Positions 33,149-41,280 of a stretch of 64,000 nucleotides of DNA are shown here, piece by piece. Each line of letters begins with the position of its first letter. The stretch's first letter is position 1. Both the position numbers and the translations under genes were made by a program. A model generated the notes under the pieces. It saw only the letters and a list, made by a program, of their open reading frames with translations, had not been told where the DNA came from and did not search any database. This DNA is from Thermocrinis ruber (GTDB lineage Bacteria; Aquificota; Aquificia; Aquificales; Aquificaceae). The DNA lies in NCBI RefSeq assembly GCF_000512735.1, contig NZ_CP007028.1, positions 868,001-932,000 of the forward strand, given 5' to 3'.

Positions 33149-33701
33149 GGTTCTTTTTAGCTCGTTCTTTACTTTTTTGGTCAAAGCCTCCTTTTATAAA
33201 GCTTTCTGACATGAGTCTTAGCTTGTCCCTTTTTTCTTCCATATGAATGAGCTTATTCTCTCCCCACACTTCTTCTCTTGCAAAATCAAGTATTACTTGA
33301 CCACTATTCATGATCCATCTTCGTGTAGGTTGTGGATACTGCCATGCAGTCCTTATATAAAAAGGTACATCATCCGCTCTGCCGTGAGGTTCCCATACTT
33401 TGTTGACAGTAAGCTTTTCTATCCTAATACTTTCAAAAAACAGCTGAAGTAAGTAGAGGTCATGCCAAGCAAGGTCCCACAAGGGAGATATGTAGCCTTT
33501 TTCCTTTCCTAACCTTTCTATCTGTATGCTCTCTACCTTTTGTGGAAAAAATTTCAAGCACGAAGAGAATGTTTCTATCTCAGAGAAGATGTCAACTTTT
33601 GGCATCCATAGACTGGGGTGGTTGATGGTTAGGACCTGAAGCAGTTCTGATACGCTTAGAAATATGGAGGCGATATAAGTAATAGAAGAAATACTAAGCA
33701 A
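33102..33701 (-). CDS. Protein of unknown function
   Basis: This protein of up to 199 residues has a convincing coding appearance toward its C-terminus (HGRADDVPFYIRTAWQYPQPTRRWIMNSGQVILDFAREE). It converges with the sigma-54 activator with a 47-bp overlap. The start is uncertain: TTG at 33701 or ATG at 33605. I recognise no family, catalytic motif or membrane segment. Confidence 0.5.
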   Translation of the reverse strand: MLSISSITYIASIFLSVSELLQVLTINHPSLWMPKVDIFSEIETFSSCLKFFPQKVESIQIERLGKEKGYISPLWDLAWHDLYLLQLFFESIRIEKLTVNKVWEPHGRADDVPFYIRTAWQYPQPTRRWIMNSGQVILDFAREEVWGENKLIHMEEKRDKLRLMSESFIKGGFDQKSKERAKKNLILLEHIERLPATSF

Positions 33702-34085
33702 AGTTTTTAAGTGGCACAGGTTTCCTGTAAGCCTAAAATCAGAAGCTGTGCTCTTCTACTTTAAGGGACTTTCTCTAAGAACAATAAGGGAGTTCCTACT
33801 TCACGGGGATTATAAAGTAAGCATAGAGAAGCCCTCAGAGAATGGTTCCATGCGGTAGGAAAAGCTCTTCAGGCAAATATACACAACCGCTGTTTGGGTC
33901 TATGTGGATAAGACAAAGATAAAAGCAAGGGATAGGACTTACTACCTGTGGCTTGCGGTAGACGAGAGAGGTTTGCCTGTGTCTGTGCATCTTTCAAGAA
34001 GAAGGGACTCTTAGACCGCTAAATTGGTTCTTTACAAAACAAAGGCAAAGGGATGCACCACTAACAAAGGACCTTATCCCGCTAA
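33700..34085 (+). pseudogene. Degenerate IS6-type DDE transposase remnant
   Basis: Translation with breaks gives KWHRFPVSLKSEAVLFYFKG, LSLRTIREFLLHGDYKVSIE, then VWVYVDKTKIKARDRTYYLW and LAVDERGLPVSVHLSRRRDS followed by stops. This resembles the N-terminus and first Asp block (VDxT/K) of IS6-like transposases. The frame is broken by stops and the rest of the catalytic domain is missing. It ends just before the Argonaute start, so an earlier insertion event shaped this boundary. Confidence 0.6.
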
Positions 34086-35099
34086 AATAAACAGTTATGA
34101 CAAAGGGGGAATTAATTTCAAATTTGTTTGGTTTAACCCAGAACGAGCCTTTGCAGGTGTGGACCTATAGACTTAAGGAGAAAGAAACTGCATCTAATAA
34201 GCATATAAGGTTTCTCTTAAATAGTGCGTGCTGGCGTTTGCTTTATACGTATAAAGAGTATGAAAAACCCTTTTTCTACGACAGGGAAACAATAATATCT
34301 TTAGTGGATATAGGTGATAGTTTTGAGGATGATTACTACGTTTTAGAAAAGGAATCCTCTAATCCTGAGTACTTTTTTAGTAGTCCACAGGCGTGGAGTA
34401 CATTCATAAACAGTTTTGCAAACCTGTTAATGATTTATAAGAAGGATACGGTGCGTATATCCAAGGGAATAGCAAGAAAGTATATTTTGGGTACAGAGTT
34501 CATAGACCAGCGTGCTTACCTAAGGATAGACTTCAAGTATATGCTATTCTTTCCAGAAACCTTATACAGGCAGTTGGAACGAGGTGAACAACCAGAAATC
34601 GGTGGGAAATACTACACACCTAGTAGAAGCGTAGCAACATTAAAGGAGTACAGAAAGGTAAGTGTGGAGGAATATGAAAAACTGATGAAGGAAATGCTAC
34701 CAAGATCTAGTGAAATAACAAAGGATAGATGGGAAAAGGGACTGGAGAAGGCTAAACAGCGTGGATATGGATATATAGCCATAGTTGTGTTTGATGAAGT
34801 TGATGAAGATGATGGAAGGGAATATACGTATCCCGCCAACGCTTTAGTAAAGGTGCGGTATATAGAAGACTTAGACAGAGAAGAGTTGCAACGAATAAGA
34901 CCTAAATCCAAGGAACGATGGGAACTTATTGAGAGGTTTAGGGATAGGGTGGCGTCTCTGTTGAGAGAGCATTCAATAGGCCTTGATGAGGAGCCTTACA
35001 CAAAAATAGAGTATATTGCACCAAGTTTTGAAGTCGTAGATGGTGGTGGTGGCTAACAGTTGCCATTTTCCGTTCAAAAGTGTAAAATCTTAGCATAGC

Positions 35100-36755
35100 A
35101 TGGTGCTAAGTATAGCAGGTAGCAAAAACTTTAGCGAAGAAAAAGCCCATAAACTCTACATAACTCTGGAATGTATGCTGGAGTTTGAAAAGGAAGAAGA
35201 GAAAGAAAAAGTATTAGCTTTAATGCGCAGGTTTTCTTCCGCAACAAGATATGCATACAAAAGACTGTTAGAGGGAGTAGCAGAAAAAGAAATAGAAAAA
35301 GCAACTCAAGAAAAGCATAAACTAAACGCAAGGTATGTGAAAGACGCTGTCTTAATAGCAAAGCAAGTGCTAAAGTCCTGCATGCAAAGAGGTCAAAATC
35401 CCAAAAAGCTTGTGTTTGGTTCAAGGGAGTTGTTTGAAAAGCTAAAGAAGAAACATCTAACAGGCAAACGTAGAGAAAAGCTACGCCAAAGGTGGGAAGA
35501 AAGGAGATATTGCTACCTCTACTCAAGAGGAGAAAAGTTCCACAAAGGAAACCTAAACCTTAGGTTTGTAAATTTGAATAACCAATGGCATCTGAGGATT
35601 AACTTAGGAAACGGTGAGTATGTATGGGCTAAGGTTGTAAGGAATGCAAAGAGACACAAAGACAAATGGATTGACTTTACATGGAGACTTTTGGAAGCGG
35701 AAAAATCAGGTGAGTGGTTTGCGTATAACGTGAGGTTGAAGGTGAGAAATGGCAAGTTTTACGCACAAGTCAGTTGGGAAGAAAAGACTGTAGAACCTGT
35801 TATAACTAAAGCTTACGGAGTTATAGGTATAGACATCAACGCTTATCCCTTTCATTTAGCTTTAGCTTATGTATCAACGGACGGGAATTTAGAAAAGTTT
35901 GAACGCATAGATTTAAGGGAGATGGAGGGCAAAACCAAAAATCAGCGGGAACACATAGCATGGCATATAGCAAGGCAAGTGGTAGAGAGGGCTTTAGAAA
36001 ATGGAAAGGCTATTGTTGTGGAAGATTTGCAAAAAGTCCCTAAGGGCAGAAGAGGAGACGGTTTGGCTAAATTAAGGAGAAAACTCCATAAATGGGCGTA
36101 TAGGTCAGTCTTAGAGAAAATTGAAGTCTATGCAAGGAGTATGGGAGTTCAGTTGATAAAGGTCAATCCTGCCTATACATCAATCATTGGCAAGCTTAAA
36201 TATTCTCCCATGTTAGGCATAGACAAGGATGTAGCGGGTGCTTATGTAATTGGCAGGCGTGGGCTTGGGTTTGAGGAAAGGCTTCCCAAGAATTACAGGG
36301 AACTACTCAAGGACAAGGAGTTTTTGGCGTATGCTATTGCTAAGGTGGATGAGAGGATTAATAAGCTGAAGAGTGAGTTAAAGAGAGAGACCAACGAATA
36401 CAAGAGGAACGCCCTCAAGGAGAGGGTTAAGCGGTTAAGGAAGTATCTTGAGTTATTGCTTTCCTATACACGGGACAGCGGGAAGAGTGAGCCAGCTACC
36501 CAACAAGCGGTTAATCGTGAGATGAAACCGATGAGGGGTAGGGCAAAGTCCCTACAAAAAAGCTGGCGAGTTCTTTCCGTAGCCCTTGCGGTTTTGCTTG
36601 CCACTACTTGCCTTGAGTGGTGTAGGGACCACTCTCCCTTGAAGCGTGTTTTGATTTCAGGGGATTGGGCAAGGGTGGCTGGCAAGGGTAGTCCCTCCCT
36701 TCCAGGTCAGGGGACGACTGCACAAAATAAGTGCAGTTTTATACACTTTGGGTGA
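35100..36755 (+). CDS. tnpB: TnpB, RNA-guided nuclease of IS605-type element
   Basis: This RuvC-type protein has the acidic triad at Asp245 (VIGIDINAYP), Glu308 (AIVVEDL) and Asp375/377 (NPAYTSIIGKLKYSPMLGIDKD). The typical AYVIGRRGLGF follows. The CxxC zinc finger of classical TnpB between the last two motifs is absent, as in some thermophile lineages. The frame stays open to 551 residues, and its last 90 or so codons overlap the structured right end (likely the guide-RNA region), so the true C-terminus may be functionally shorter. It appears intact. A relative lies at 63248. Confidence 0.85.
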   Translation: MVLSIAGSKNFSEEKAHKLYITLECMLEFEKEEEKEKVLALMRRFSSATRYAYKRLLEGVAEKEIEKATQEKHKLNARYVKDAVLIAKQVLKSCMQRGQNPKKLVFGSRELFEKLKKKHLTGKRREKLRQRWEERRYCYLYSRGEKFHKGNLNLRFVNLNNQWHLRINLGNGEYVWAKVVRNAKRHKDKWIDFTWRLLEAEKSGEWFAYNVRLKVRNGKFYAQVSWEEKTVEPVITKAYGVIGIDINAYPFHLALAYVSTDGNLEKFERIDLREMEGKTKNQREHIAWHIARQVVERALENGKAIVVEDLQKVPKGRRGDGLAKLRRKLHKWAYRSVLEKIEVYARSMGVQLIKVNPAYTSIIGKLKYSPMLGIDKDVAGAYVIGRRGLGFEERLPKNYRELLKDKEFLAYAIAKVDERINKLKSELKRETNEYKRNALKERVKRLRKYLELLLSYTRDSGKSEPATQQAVNREMKPMRGRAKSLQKSWRVLSVALAVLLATTCLEWCRDHSPLKRVLISGDWARVAGKGSPSLPGQGTTAQNKCSFIHFG

Positions 36756-36760
36756 CCTGG
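36702..36760 (+). other. Nested stem-loops at the right end of the TnpB element (candidate omega-RNA 3' scaffold)
   Basis: An outer 8-bp stem pairs CCAGGTCA (36702-36709) with TGACCTGG (36753-36760), ending at the inferred element boundary. Inside it a 6-bp hairpin, CTGCAC (36718-36723) with GTGCAG (36731-36736), has a 7-nt loop. In this element class, right-end RNA overlapping the tnpB 3' end is processed to the guide RNA and the bases just beyond are the guide. Here those bases would be Argonaute sequence. Confidence 0.6.
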
Positions 36761-37929
36761 GAAAATCTATCAAATCAACGGGTCTGTTAGGAAAGTTTTA
36801 GAAACTCAGGACTGGAAGCCCATAATTAGAAATCCTCGTATCTCTGTGGGTTTTCTGTATTTATACACAAACAGAAACTCATTGAGAGATTTGGAAAATA
36901 GGGCACGAATTATAGAAAACACTGTGCTTAAAAGAGTTTCTTCTCTTGGTCTTTACATAGATCGCTTAAAACCTATTCCTATACCTATTCCAACAGATGT
37001 GAAGGAGTTTTCTTTATTACCTCACGTAGGAGATTTAGAGGGTTCAAATACCTTCTTATTCGTATTAACCGATGCTTCAAAACTTGATGACGAACTTTAC
37101 TTAGATATAAAACGTGATTTGTTGGAGTTTGATATTCAAAGTCAGGTTATCTACTACAGAACAAATGTAGGAGATAGGTATGTAGCCTGTAATTTGATGC
37201 TCGGCTTACTTGGTAAAACAGGAAACTATCCATATTTTCTAAAGGACTCTTCAAACAAAGTATTTGTTGGTATAGACCTTTCAAGAAAGGCAAGGAGTTC
37301 AAATAAGGGTATCGTACATGCTGTGGGCACTGCTATCATCGTGGATACTTCTGATGGAGGAACTATAACTTACAAGAATATTAATGTTCCTGCTGGAGGA
37401 GAAGCGGTAGAAAAGGCTTATGTGAAGAGTTTAGCTAACATGCTTTACAAATACAAGGATAAATTCATTGTCATTCATAGAGATGGAAGAATGGGTGTGG
37501 ATGAGCTTAATGCTTATGTGGAAGTCTTTAGTAAACAATTTGGAAGAGAAAATTTTGCTTTAGTAAGCATAATAAAGTCTGGAACTCCAAGGATTTTGCA
37601 GATAAACAGCAATATAGTGGGCAATCCTCCTAAAGGGTGTGCTATTTTGCTTTCTGAACGAGAGGCGGTTATTTCTACTTACGAGGTTAAGGAATCGTTT
37701 GGAACCCATATTCCCTTGAGGATAAAAGTCCTGTATGGTGATTATCCTTTAAATGAAGCTATAGAGGATGTGCTGAGGCTTACACTTCTAAACTTCTCTT
37801 CCTTTACACTGAACAAGTTGCCCGCCACTGTAGCTTTTGCGGATAGGATAGCATGGTATAACTTGCACGGCATTGGTCCAGAGGATACAGATGGAAATCT
37901 TTTCTTCCTATAGCACTCCAATAAATACG

Positions 37930-38183: not shown

Positions 38184-38219
38184 CTGAGGCCGTTCTATAA
38201 ATTTACAAGTTCTGAAGAT
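38184..38219 (-). other. Conserved trailer beyond the left CRISPR array
   Basis: Read from the array outward, the sequence CATCTTCAGAACTTGTAAAT and the following TTATAGAACGGCCTCAG closely match the sequence beyond the far end of the right array (45678-45715). So both arrays share not only leader and repeat but also the leader-distal flank. The inner motif TGAGGC-N-GTTCTA also occurs at 54486, 58654 and 63182. Confidence 0.55.
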
Positions 38220-38914
38220 GTTTTAATCCCCAATAGGCACTTGATAAACATACAAGGCAGTGGTGCAGAACTCTGCAAAAAAGCTAGTTTCAATCCCCTA
38301 TAGGCACTTAATAAACATGAAGGCATAGACTTTCATCACGCTAACCTCCTGACGTTTCAATCTCCTATAGGCACTTAATAAACCGAATTTGACCCTCTAC
38401 CTACTGTGCTCCCTGCATAGTTTCAATCCCCTGTAGGCACTTAATAAACAAGCGGGCTTGATAAGCTTGAAGCGAGAATCAAGTTGTTTCAATCCCCCAT
38501 TAGGTACTTGATAAACTTCGGGAAATTATTTTAGTCAAATTTTCCAGAATGTGTTTCAATCCCTACTAGGTACTTAATAAACCTTCAGGTAAAGATGCTG
38601 GATCGGACTCTACAAGTTCGTTTCAATCCCCTATAGGCACTTTATAAACGGTCATTGCCTCCAAATATTTTTTTTTGTGCTGTTTGGTTTCAATCCCCTA
38701 TAGGTACTTAATAAACCCACCGCACCATCAGGCAGAATGTCTTGTTCAGATAGTTTCAATCCCCTATGGGCACTTAATAAACTTTGTTTGCGAAAGAAAG
38801 CGTGGGTGCGGAGGTGTAGTTTCAATCCCCTATAGGCACTTAATAAACTTTGTTTGCGAAAGAAAGCGTGGGTGCGGAGGTGTAGTTTCAATCCCCTATA
38901 GGCACTTAATAAAC
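38220..38914 (-). CRISPR. CRISPR array, 11 repeats and 10 spacers, transcribed leftward
   Basis: There are eleven 30-nt repeats (starts 38220, 38287, 38354, 38420, 38486, 38553, 38620, 38687, 38753, 38819, 38885; the fifth has one extra base). In the transcribed sense they begin GTTTATTAAGTGCC and end GGGGATTGAAAC. Spacers are 36-37 nt. Repeats decay toward 38220, so that is the old end, and the leader is at 38915 upward. The two leader-proximal spacers (38783-38818 and 38849-38884) are identical. Confidence 0.95.
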
Positions 38915-39020
38915 CAGACATTCGCATTATCTATCATATTCAGTTGCCAACTTAGAGACAAGGGACTTTTAAGAGTCCCTCTACTTCATTGCCCTCATGA
39001 CTATTATAAAGCATTTTCCC
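38915..39020 (-). promoter_or_regulatory. Leader of the left CRISPR array
   Basis: About 105 bp are the near-perfect reverse complement of the right leader (45405-45512). They contain the palindrome AGGGACT...AGTCCCT (38961-38980) and a minus-strand TATAAT-like -10 box at about 39003-39008. That box overlaps the cas3 stop codon. Confidence 0.85.
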
Positions 39021-41280
39021 CTCCCTTAATGCGGAACCCTATTTCACCATCATAATACAAGCCTACATTCTCCCTTCTAACTACCCGAATTTTTAGTCTG
39101 TCATCTAATTCAATCTCACTATCTTTGCTTAGTGCCACGCTTATTACATAACTGTAGAATTCAGCCTTTAACTTTTCAAACTCTCTCTTTGCCTCCCACA
39201 AAGAGATTTCTTTTCTTTGCCGTTGTTCCCAAATTTCCTTGACTGCATTAAGCACACTCTCCGCTTTATAATCAACAGCCACAAAAACATCCTCTTTATA
39301 GGGTTGGTCTTCTATCAGCTTAAAGTTTTTATAAAGAAAGTCGTGTTTAATCCTATCCAATGCTTCAAGCAGTTCATCAGACTTGTCGTGAGATATTTTT
39401 GTCCATAGTGTCTCAAAATACTCATCTATCACATCCAAAAGCTCCCTTTCCGTTAGTTCTTCGGTTAAAAATTTTTCAGTAGCGGAAAGCAAAACAATAT
39501 CATATATTCGCCTTGAGTATTCCCTTCCGTTATCATCCACAAGCTTTACCACTCTTACCTCTCCCAATCCTCTAAATCCATGCCTATTACACCTTCCCGC
39601 AGATTGATTTATGCTATCTAAAGGAGCAAAATCTCTACACACTACATCAAAGTCTATATCCACGCCCGCCTCTACCACTTGCGTAGATACCACCACCTTA
39701 TACTTCCCTTGTTTTATCTGTTCTATTCTTTCCCTTCTTTGTTTTGGGATCACCGCAGTGGAAAGGTAAGCAATATCCACATTCACCAAGTCTTTAAGCT
39801 TCCTATAGAATTCCTGAGAACTTTTTATGGTGTTTAAGATTATCAGGAAAGTTTTGTCTTCCTTTCTTACCCTCTCTGCCACCTCCCGTGCTAAATCTTC
39901 AACGGTCCTTTTCTCAAGATCGGGAATTACTCTGAACCGCTGCAAACCTTCCCTGTATTTGGCTTTATCAACTAAATGCAAAACATGGTCTCCCTCTTCA
40001 AACACAAAAGGATTTGTAGCGGTCATCAAAATCACCCTACTGTTTAACTCTTCTGTAAGCTTTTTAAAGCATTCCTTTACAAAACGCCAATATCTATGCG
40101 GTAAGGCTTGCAGTTCATCTACTATTACCACACTGTCCTTAAGCTTGTTGAAGCGTCTAAGATAGGAGTTCTCCGCCCCAAGAAGTGCGTATAAGAATTG
40201 ATGGAAAGTGGTCAAAATAACACCCGAGTTCCAACCCTCAAAGAATACCCTTGCGGTGTCAAAATCGTATTCTCTTTCTCTATCTCCCTGAAAATAGCCA
40301 ATTTCGGAAAGATGATGATGAACTATAAGTTCTGTGCTGTCTTTTAGACCAATACCTCGTAAAACCAATTCCGTTTGGTCTATTATGCTGAGGAAAGGAA
40401 GACTATACACAATCCTTTTTAATCCAAGGTTCTTAGCAAGCCCTGCCGCAAAAGATAGCCCCGTGAGAGTCTTACCCATCCCTGTAGGGAGCGTGAGTGC
40501 GTATAGCTTGTAGTCCTTGGCGATAGGCAGTTTTGCCATCACCTCTTTAAAAGCCTCTTCCCTCTTTTGATTTATTTCTGAATCGTTTTTTCTAAGCTGT
40601 TCTCTGTATATCTCTATTCTTTCCAAGCTTAAAACCCGTGTTTCAGGGACGCTATCCTCTTTACTTCCAGCCTGCGTTTTGTCCGCATCAAGCAAAACAG
40701 AAAAGAAAAGATTAAAGTCAAACAACCCTTTTTCAAGTTTCAGTCCACCCACAATCCTTCCAAGATTGCCTACTATCAATTTTAGCCGATTTAGGACTTC
40801 TTCTCCCAAAAAGGCTTTGCTTTTTATTCTTTCAGGGATATCAAGCAACTCCACAACTCGGTTGAACTTTTCCACCTCAATTGCTTCTATTTGCTTTAGG
40901 AGAATGTCCCTTCTTTCCTTTGATAGGAGGTCATCAAACGTGTTTTTTAGTCCCTTTAAATCTGTGTGATGTTTCAGAGGATATAGAAAGCATTCTGTTA
41001 GCCTGTCATCAAATCCTAAAGAGTGTGCGAGGTTCAAGCAATACACCGCAGAAAGATAGGAATGGTCTGAAAATTTGGTCTTCTTACCACTCAATATGTA
41101 ATCCTGAAAATATTTAGTGGATTTACCAAAGTCGTGGAAAGCCAAGGGAACATAGAACCATTCAGGGATATTCTCTCCATAAAGCTGTTTGGCAATCTTA
41201 ATAACTCCATTTATATGGTCTTCCATAAAAACGTTGGGATGGGAATAAAGTCCGCTACACATGGGGCATAAAACAGACAC
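39004..41280 (-). CDS. cas3: CRISPR-associated helicase/nuclease Cas3 (type I-B)
   Basis: Cas3 unwinds and degrades target DNA recruited by Cascade. The 758-residue protein has an N-terminal HD nuclease (HINGVIKIAK and FHDFGKSTKYFQDY, about residues 25-60). A superfamily 2 helicase follows with Walker A GMGKTLTGL, motif II VVIVDELQALP, TATNPF, and STQVVEAGVDIDFD...NQSAGRCNRHG. It overlaps cas5 by 26 bp, and the start could be a few codons further in. It is last in the cas operon; its stop codon lies inside the array leader. Confidence 0.93.
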   Translation of the reverse strand: MSVLCPMCSGLYSHPNVFMEDHINGVIKIAKQLYGENIPEWFYVPLAFHDFGKSTKYFQDYILSGKKTKFSDHSYLSAVYCLNLAHSLGFDDRLTECFLYPLKHHTDLKGLKNTFDDLLSKERRDILLKQIEAIEVEKFNRVVELLDIPERIKSKAFLGEEVLNRLKLIVGNLGRIVGGLKLEKGLFDFNLFFSVLLDADKTQAGSKEDSVPETRVLSLERIEIYREQLRKNDSEINQKREEAFKEVMAKLPIAKDYKLYALTLPTGMGKTLTGLSFAAGLAKNLGLKRIVYSLPFLSIIDQTELVLRGIGLKDSTELIVHHHLSEIGYFQGDREREYDFDTARVFFEGWNSGVILTTFHQFLYALLGAENSYLRRFNKLKDSVVIVDELQALPHRYWRFVKECFKKLTEELNSRVILMTATNPFVFEEGDHVLHLVDKAKYREGLQRFRVIPDLEKRTVEDLAREVAERVRKEDKTFLIILNTIKSSQEFYRKLKDLVNVDIAYLSTAVIPKQRRERIEQIKQGKYKVVVSTQVVEAGVDIDFDVVCRDFAPLDSINQSAGRCNRHGFRGLGEVRVVKLVDDNGREYSRRIYDIVLLSATEKFLTEELTERELLDVIDEYFETLWTKISHDKSDELLEALDRIKHDFLYKNFKLIEDQPYKEDVFVAVDYKAESVLNAVKEIWEQRQRKEISLWEAKREFEKLKAEFYSYVISVALSKDSEIELDDRLKIRVVRRENVGLYYDGEIGFRIKGGENAL

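What the first reader, a model, noticed from the sequence alone, without database searches (positions are those of the whole stretch)
34097..37913. Full-length Argonaute split by a TnpB element
Argonaute coding stops after VVDGGG and resumes in frame as GKIYQING on the other side of a 1.7-kb TnpB element. Joined, the pieces make a long Argonaute of about 700 residues with MID phosphate-binding residues and all four PIWI catalytic acids. The two halves show no further stops, so the insertion is recent or reversible. Clean excision would restore a defence nuclease. It pits one nucleic-acid-guided nuclease (TnpB) against another (Argonaute) at one locus.
Basis: partly seen in the sequence, partly recalled or inferred. 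Interest (0 to 1): 0.85.

Follow-up and report, generated by a model that had tools for sequence, protein, structure and literature searches.

The report
Argonaute gene split by TnpB transposon
In a heat-loving bacterium, a small mobile element carrying its own RNA-guided DNA cutter (TnpB) has landed precisely inside the gene for another guided DNA cutter (Argonaute), breaking it; this is a clear and elegant but ordinary kind of gene disruption.

Summary
Confirmed. A 701-codon long Argonaute (AaAgo-like, all four PIWI acids and the Y-K-Q-K MID residues) is interrupted after codon 317 by a 1,709-bp element at 35050-36758. Joining the flanks at one shared GG gives an open frame that aligns end to end with intact relatives. 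The element is an IS607-type insertion that has lost its serine transposase. Its ends match those of complete tnpA+tnpB elements about 50% identical in the same family (GG|NNNNN-AACAGTTG ... hairpin-ACCWGG). Near copies (86-92% protein identity) are bounded by the same motifs, and an orthologous empty site in two relatives shows precise insertion at GG. The site GGTGG fits the family's target motif GGWGG and resembles published IS607 TnpB target motifs (AGGAG). TnpB keeps its D-E-D residues, and a covarying right-end RNA hairpin would make the downstream argonaute sequence the guide. So TnpB is predicted to cut any intact argonaute allele and keep the insertion. 'Reversible' is unsupported: no Y1 transposase or serine recombinase was found in this genome, and no serine recombinase in its genus-mates. 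No uninterrupted orthologue was found; the nearest Argonaute is 37-39% identical. A well-resolved new member of a known kind.

The parts
34097..35049 (+). Argonaute 5' part (codons 1-317 plus two bases of codon 318): N and PAZ-like domains
   Evidence: AF2 model matches AaAgo
35045..35049 (+). Target-site motif GGTGG, the last two G being the GG crossover dinucleotide
   Evidence: left flank GGAGG or GGTGG in 21 of 22 LE hits with the standard spacing; GGTGG present in the empty sites of L059
35050..36758 (+). Inserted element: IS607-type, tnpA-less, 1,709 bp
   Evidence: homology to near copies ends at the GG at each end that is preserved; LE/RE match complete IS607 elements L083/L029 and L084/L033
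35050..35062 (+). Left end TGGCT-AACAGTTG
   Evidence: shared AACAGTTG 5 nt from GG in relatives
35100..36755 (+). TnpB, 551 aa; RuvC D245, E308, D375/D377; no zinc ribbon; stop TGA lies in the right end
   Evidence: TIGR01766 E=1.5e-19, TIGR01765 E=7.5e-14; catalytic motifs aligned
36702..36760 (+). Right-end RNA (predicted reRNA/omega RNA) 3' hairpin: CCAGGTCA 36702-36709 pairs with TGACCTGG 36753-36760, inner stem ACTGCAC/GTGCAGT
   Evidence: A-U to U-A compensatory change in L054 and G-U in L057; no Rfam match
36759..36760 (+). [quoted passage not shown]
36761..36780 (+). Predicted guide of the reRNA: GAAAATCTATCAAATCAACG, i.e. argonaute sequence
   Evidence: position by analogy with IS607 ISXfa1 reRNA boundary (PMC10711439); inference
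36761..37913 (+). Argonaute 3' part: L2, MID (Y431 K435 Q446 K470) and PIWI (D490 E532 D559 D679), numbering of the joined 701-aa protein

Best explanation
A long, catalytically equipped Argonaute gene was broken by a precise insertion of an IS607-family element that has lost its serine transposase and keeps only TnpB and its right-end guide RNA. Insertion used a GG crossover after a GGTGG motif made by the gene's own Gly-Gly-Gly codons (GAT GGT GGT GG^G AAA). Shown: the split, the exact ends, the IS607 ancestry, the intact coding frames and catalytic residues, and the lack of a detectable serine or Y1 transposase in the genome. Inferred: the right-end RNA ends in the conserved ACCTGG stem and takes the next 16-20 nt of argonaute as guide. 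TnpB would then cut the GGTGG-flanked intact allele whenever it appears, and repair from the occupied copy would keep the element and the Argonaute knock-out in place. The Argonaute is therefore most likely inactive now, and restorable only if a compatible IS607 transposase arrives in trans.
For: Joined 701-aa frame aligns through the junction. N- and C-halves both fold-match AaAgo. Relatives carry single ORFs. Near copies L057, L058, L059, L053 share the element up to GG. Empty orthologous site of L059 in L068/L070: AAAGGGGTGG|TACTACT against filled GGGTGG|TAGCCAACAG...GTGACCT|GGTACTACC. Serine recombinase directly 5' of TnpB relatives in G042 and G049, with matching LE and RE. GGWGG left flank in 21 of 22 LE hits against a background of 0.3%. 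Hairpin covariation. D-E-D present. No PF00239 or PF01797 in the own genome, while the same PF00239 search finds recombinases in 17 relatives. Literature: IS607 GG overlap (PMC4058570); IS607 TnpB cuts at AGGAG-type TAMs (PMC11061315); IS607 scaffold includes the right-flanking nucleotide (PMC10711439).
Against: No orthologous uninterrupted argonaute allele exists in the collections searched (nearest 37-39% identity), so the empty site in this gene is inferred from frame and from sister insertions. TnpB activity, reRNA and TAM were not tested; TnpB scores below the NCBIfam guided_TnpB cut-off (60 vs 100 bits) and has no zinc ribbon. The TAM is inferred from flanks only, and one relative (L053) has GGTGA.
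Confidence: 0.86

Rival explanations
1. The two halves are still made as separate polypeptides (N-PAZ, 319 aa, and MID-PIWI) and assemble into a working two-part Argonaute, like natural short pAgos with a separate partner.
For: Both halves stay open with all MID and PIWI residues; the C-half model also matches short pAgos of SPARTA; a 319-aa N-half would be made with an almost native C-terminus.
Against: The C-half has no native start: its first in-frame start codon is a GTG at 36846, about 28 codons into it, with no Shine-Dalgarno-like sequence in the 30 nt before it. Intact relatives are single-chain. Absence of stops is equally expected from a young insertion.
Confidence: 0.07
2. The insertion is a reversible switch: precise excision regularly restores Argonaute in part of the population.
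For: IS607 crossover at GG is conservative, so excision would restore the frame exactly (PMC4058570); no secondary lesions in the gene.
Against: No serine recombinase or Y1 transposase in the genome; none of the same-genus genomes has a PF00239 protein; TnpB itself does not excise and would cut restored alleles.
Confidence: 0.05
3. Assembly error: the element was joined into the gene by mistake.
For: Six other TnpB copies in the genome could in principle confuse an assembly.
Against: Single-contig genome; the other copies are only about 45% identical in protein and have quite different ends; the element is single-copy with flanks exactly at a family-typical site.
Confidence: 0.02

Closest known systems
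IS607-family insertion sequences (IS607, ISC1904, ISXfa1)
   Same: GG crossover dinucleotide, LE/RE repeats, TnpB with right-end RNA, AGGAG/GGWGG-like flank; relatives in the family carry the serine recombinase directly 5' of tnpB
   Different: This copy has no tnpA; TnpB is a long (551 aa) form without a zinc ribbon; its RNA matches no Rfam family
RAGATH-18-associated IS607 TnpBs (ISFba1; PMC11061315)
   Same: IS607 TnpB with TAM 5'-AGGAG, close to the GGAGG/GGTGG flanks seen here
   Different: No RAGATH-18 match here; ISFba1 TnpB is 387 aa
Aquifex aeolicus Argonaute (AaAgo, PDB 1yvu/2f8s)
   Same: Best PDB sequence and fold match for the C-half, best fold match for the N-half; same DEDD and Y-K-Q-K residues
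   Different: Clearly diverged in sequence; here the gene is interrupted
Short pAgo systems (SPARTA, MID-PIWI plus separate partner)
   Same: A MID-PIWI half separated from the N-terminal part
   Different: Here the separation is caused by an insertion; relatives are single long pAgos and no TIR/SIR2-APAZ partner was noticed among the ORFs next to it

Membership tests
Long prokaryotic Argonaute | N-PAZ-MID-PIWI in one chain of about 700 aa | tested here: met
   Only after joining the flanks: 701 aa, single-domain alignment to L016 over 6-701; fold matches of both halves
Long prokaryotic Argonaute | PIWI DEDX catalytic tetrad | tested here: met
   D490, E532, D559, D679 invariant in alignments A2/A5 and aligned with AaAgo
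Long prokaryotic Argonaute | MID 5'-end pocket residues (Y/R-K-Q-K) | tested here: met
   Y431 K435 Q446 K470, invariant in A2
Long prokaryotic Argonaute | Guide loading and target cleavage | not testable with these tools
   needs protein; the gene as it stands cannot make the whole chain
IS607-family element | GG crossover dinucleotide at both ends, one copy at the empty site | tested here: met
   ends in L008/L057/L058/L059; empty site L068/L070
IS607-family element | Serine recombinase TnpA | tested here: not met
   absent from this copy and genome; present directly 5' of TnpB in relatives G042, G049. Hence filed as a tnpA-less derivative, not an autonomous IS607 element
TnpB RNA-guided nuclease | RuvC D-E-D triad | tested here: met
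   D245, E308, D375/D377 conserved in relatives
TnpB RNA-guided nuclease | NCBIfam guided_TnpB cut-off | tested here: not met
   60 bits vs cut-off 100; but TIGR01766 and TIGR01765 are above their cut-offs
TnpB RNA-guided nuclease | Zinc ribbon between RuvC-II and III | tested here: not met
   no CxxC pair between S361 and D375; a shared trait of this subfamily. Many, not all, TnpBs carry it (PMC10711439)
TnpB RNA-guided nuclease | Right-end RNA with conserved fold, guide from the right flank | tested here: inconclusive
   conserved terminal hairpin with one compensatory and several one-sided changes in 5 sequences; total covariation term small; no expression data

The most novel reading that the evidence does not exclude
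The TnpB element acts as a drive against a rival guided nuclease: with argonaute sequence as its guide it cuts every intact argonaute allele that enters the population (by transformation or from sister cells), so an RNA-guided nuclease keeps a defence nuclease, which might otherwise restrict mobile DNA including the element, permanently switched off.
Probability: 0.15. Interest if true: 0.7.

Novelty: new member of a known kind. Interest (0 to 1): 0.38.

Why it matters
It is a natural knock-out of a thermophilic long Argonaute by another guided nuclease, with the exact ends, target motif, predicted guide and ancestral allele all read from sequence. That makes a concrete test of whether TnpB keeps its own disruptive insertions in place. 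It also supplies one more AaAgo-like Argonaute and a group of IS607-type TnpBs whose target motif GGWGG includes the Shine-Dalgarno core GGAGG.

Tried and rejected
Y1-transposase (IS200/IS605) origin: rejected, since the ends show GG crossover and relatives carry a serine recombinase. A junction at the earlier GG (DGG-K, 700 aa) was first considered; comparison with LE spacing in complete IS607 relatives (GG-5 nt-AACAG) places it one codon later (DGGG-K, 701 aa). The 8-bp GGGCTTGG repeat beside copy L058 looked like a target duplication; uninterrupted relatives (G000, G055, G056) show it comes from two nearby sites, with about 490 bp lost on insertion. CRISPR spacers next to the gene: none matches the element or the Argonaute. 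Rfam for the right-end RNA: no match. TnpB in viral contigs: none. The element in PLSDB plasmids: none. A paper describing this locus: none found in the searches made.

Full report
WHAT IS THERE. Window 34097-37913 holds three forward frames: an Argonaute-like N-terminal ORF (34097-35056), a 551-aa TnpB ORF (35100-36755) and a C-terminal Argonaute frame (36756-37913). The C-part matches Pfam Piwi (E=6e-20), PADLOC pAgo profiles (1.5e-53) and AaAgo in the PDB (1.7e-36). The N-part alone is weaker but clear: phmmer to the intact relative in L016 E=2e-10, family profile E=1e-16, and its AF2 model (mean pLDDT 76) finds A. aeolicus Argonaute first, E=4e-14, TM 0.64. The C-part model (mean pLDDT 67) also finds AaAgo first, E=4e-21.

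THE JUNCTION. Joining 35049 to 36761 gives 701 codons without a stop, reading EVVDGGG-KIYQING. One phmmer domain covers residues 6-701 against 11-707 of the intact Argonaute of G014 (E=2e-75) and runs through the junction. Intact single ORFs of 702-772 aa occur in five same-family genomes. PIWI D490, E532, D559, D679 and MID Y431, K435, Q446, K470 are invariant in the alignments.

WHAT THE ELEMENT IS. Near copies of the element (86-92% protein identity) occur in other Aquificaceae genomes: L057, L058, L059 and a copy in L053. DNA homology ends at GG at each end that is preserved. For L059 the orthologous empty site exists in two relatives: AAAGGGGTGG|TACTACT against GGGTGG|TAGCCAACAG...GTGACCT|GGTACTACC, i.e. 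precise insertion with one GG at the empty site. More distant relatives (about 50% protein identity) in G042 and G049 have a serine recombinase gene directly 5' of tnpB, the layout of a complete IS607-family element, with the same left motif (GG-NNNNN-AACAGTTG) and right motif (ATACACTTTTGGTAACCAGG; window ATACACTTTGGGTGACCTGG). The GG overlap is the known IS607 crossover (PMC4058570). The window element is therefore a tnpA-less IS607-type element of 1,709 bp, 35050-36758. No serine recombinase or Y1 transposase was found in this genome, and no same-genus genome has a serine recombinase.

TARGET AND GUIDE. In 21 of 22 left ends found with the standard spacing, the flank is GGAGG (17) or GGTGG (4); the background rate of this motif in the same loci is 0.3%. 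Not all of these need be independent insertions. In argonaute the motif is made by Gly codons: GAT GGT GGT GG^G. [quoted passage not shown] The window's right end forms a hairpin CCAGGTCA...TGACCTGG whose last two bases are the right GG; L054 keeps the stem by a compensatory change (CCTGGTCA...TGACCAGG), L057 by a G-U pair. The predicted guide is therefore GAAAATCTATCAAATCAACG, argonaute sequence from 36761. TnpB keeps the RuvC acids D245, E308 and D375/D377 and lacks a zinc ribbon, as do its aligned relatives.

HOW IT MOST LIKELY WORKS. Shown: precise IS607-type insertion splitting a complete long Argonaute, no transposase found in the genome, intact TnpB frame and right end. Inferred: TnpB with its right-end RNA recognises GGTGG + GAAAATC... 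only when the element is absent, cuts that allele, and repair from an occupied copy restores the element. Argonaute is then held inactive. The insertion need not be very young: about 1.15 nonsense mutations are expected per 1% neutral divergence across the 701 codons, so zero stops only bounds divergence to roughly 2-3% at 95% if the halves are unselected (the bound is my arithmetic).

LIMITS. No uninterrupted allele of this same gene was found: nearest Argonautes are 35-39% identical in 64 family genomes, 136 phylum genomes and the genome-contig collection. The six other same-genus genomes have none. The Argonaute is thus an accessory gene in this species, and the empty allele is inferred. 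Function of TnpB, its RNA and the Argonaute was not tested. No paper describing this locus was found in the open-access library.

VERDICT. Interest 0.38.

Noticed in passing
own genome loci L009-L014; one begins at window 63184: Six other TnpB genes in this genome (about 45% identical to this one) lie in elements with imperfect 17-18-bp terminal inverted repeats GAGGCTGTTCTAAAAATC...GATTTTTAGAACAGCCTC instead of IS607 ends; the repeat occurs 23 times in the genome with up to 2 mismatches against 1 control match. This looks like TnpB captured by a transposon of another class.
   Followed up: partly
LE flanks of L029-L054, L083, L084: The IS607-type family in Aquificaceae inserts after GGAGG or GGTGG; GGAGG is the Shine-Dalgarno core, so these elements would tend to land on ribosome-binding sites.
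   Followed up: partly
L058 (G054:C50) against L061-L063: Insertion of a near copy of the element together with loss of about 490 bp between two GGGTGG sites; three relatives (G000, G055, G056) keep the uninterrupted stretch.
   Followed up: yes
38220-38914: CRISPR array of 11 imperfect 30-bp repeats directly downstream of the Argonaute, with the same 36-nt spacer in the last two positions; an ORF that looks like cas3 follows at 39004-41280 (-). No spacer matches the element or the Argonaute.
   Followed up: partly
36753-36758: The Argonaute C-half is in the same frame as TnpB, separated only by the TnpB TGA stop, so read-through would give a TnpB-MID-PIWI fusion; probably a 1-in-3 coincidence.
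   Followed up: no
33690-34060: Sequence just upstream of the Argonaute looks by eye like a decayed transposase gene; not tested.
   Followed up: no
38186-38202: GAGGCCGTTCTATAAAT, two mismatches from the inverted repeat of the other TnpB elements, lies between the Argonaute and the CRISPR array; may be a relic.
   Followed up: no
L021 and L023 (G049:C7): Another Aquificaceae Argonaute is also broken into two frames with an in-frame stop.
   Followed up: no
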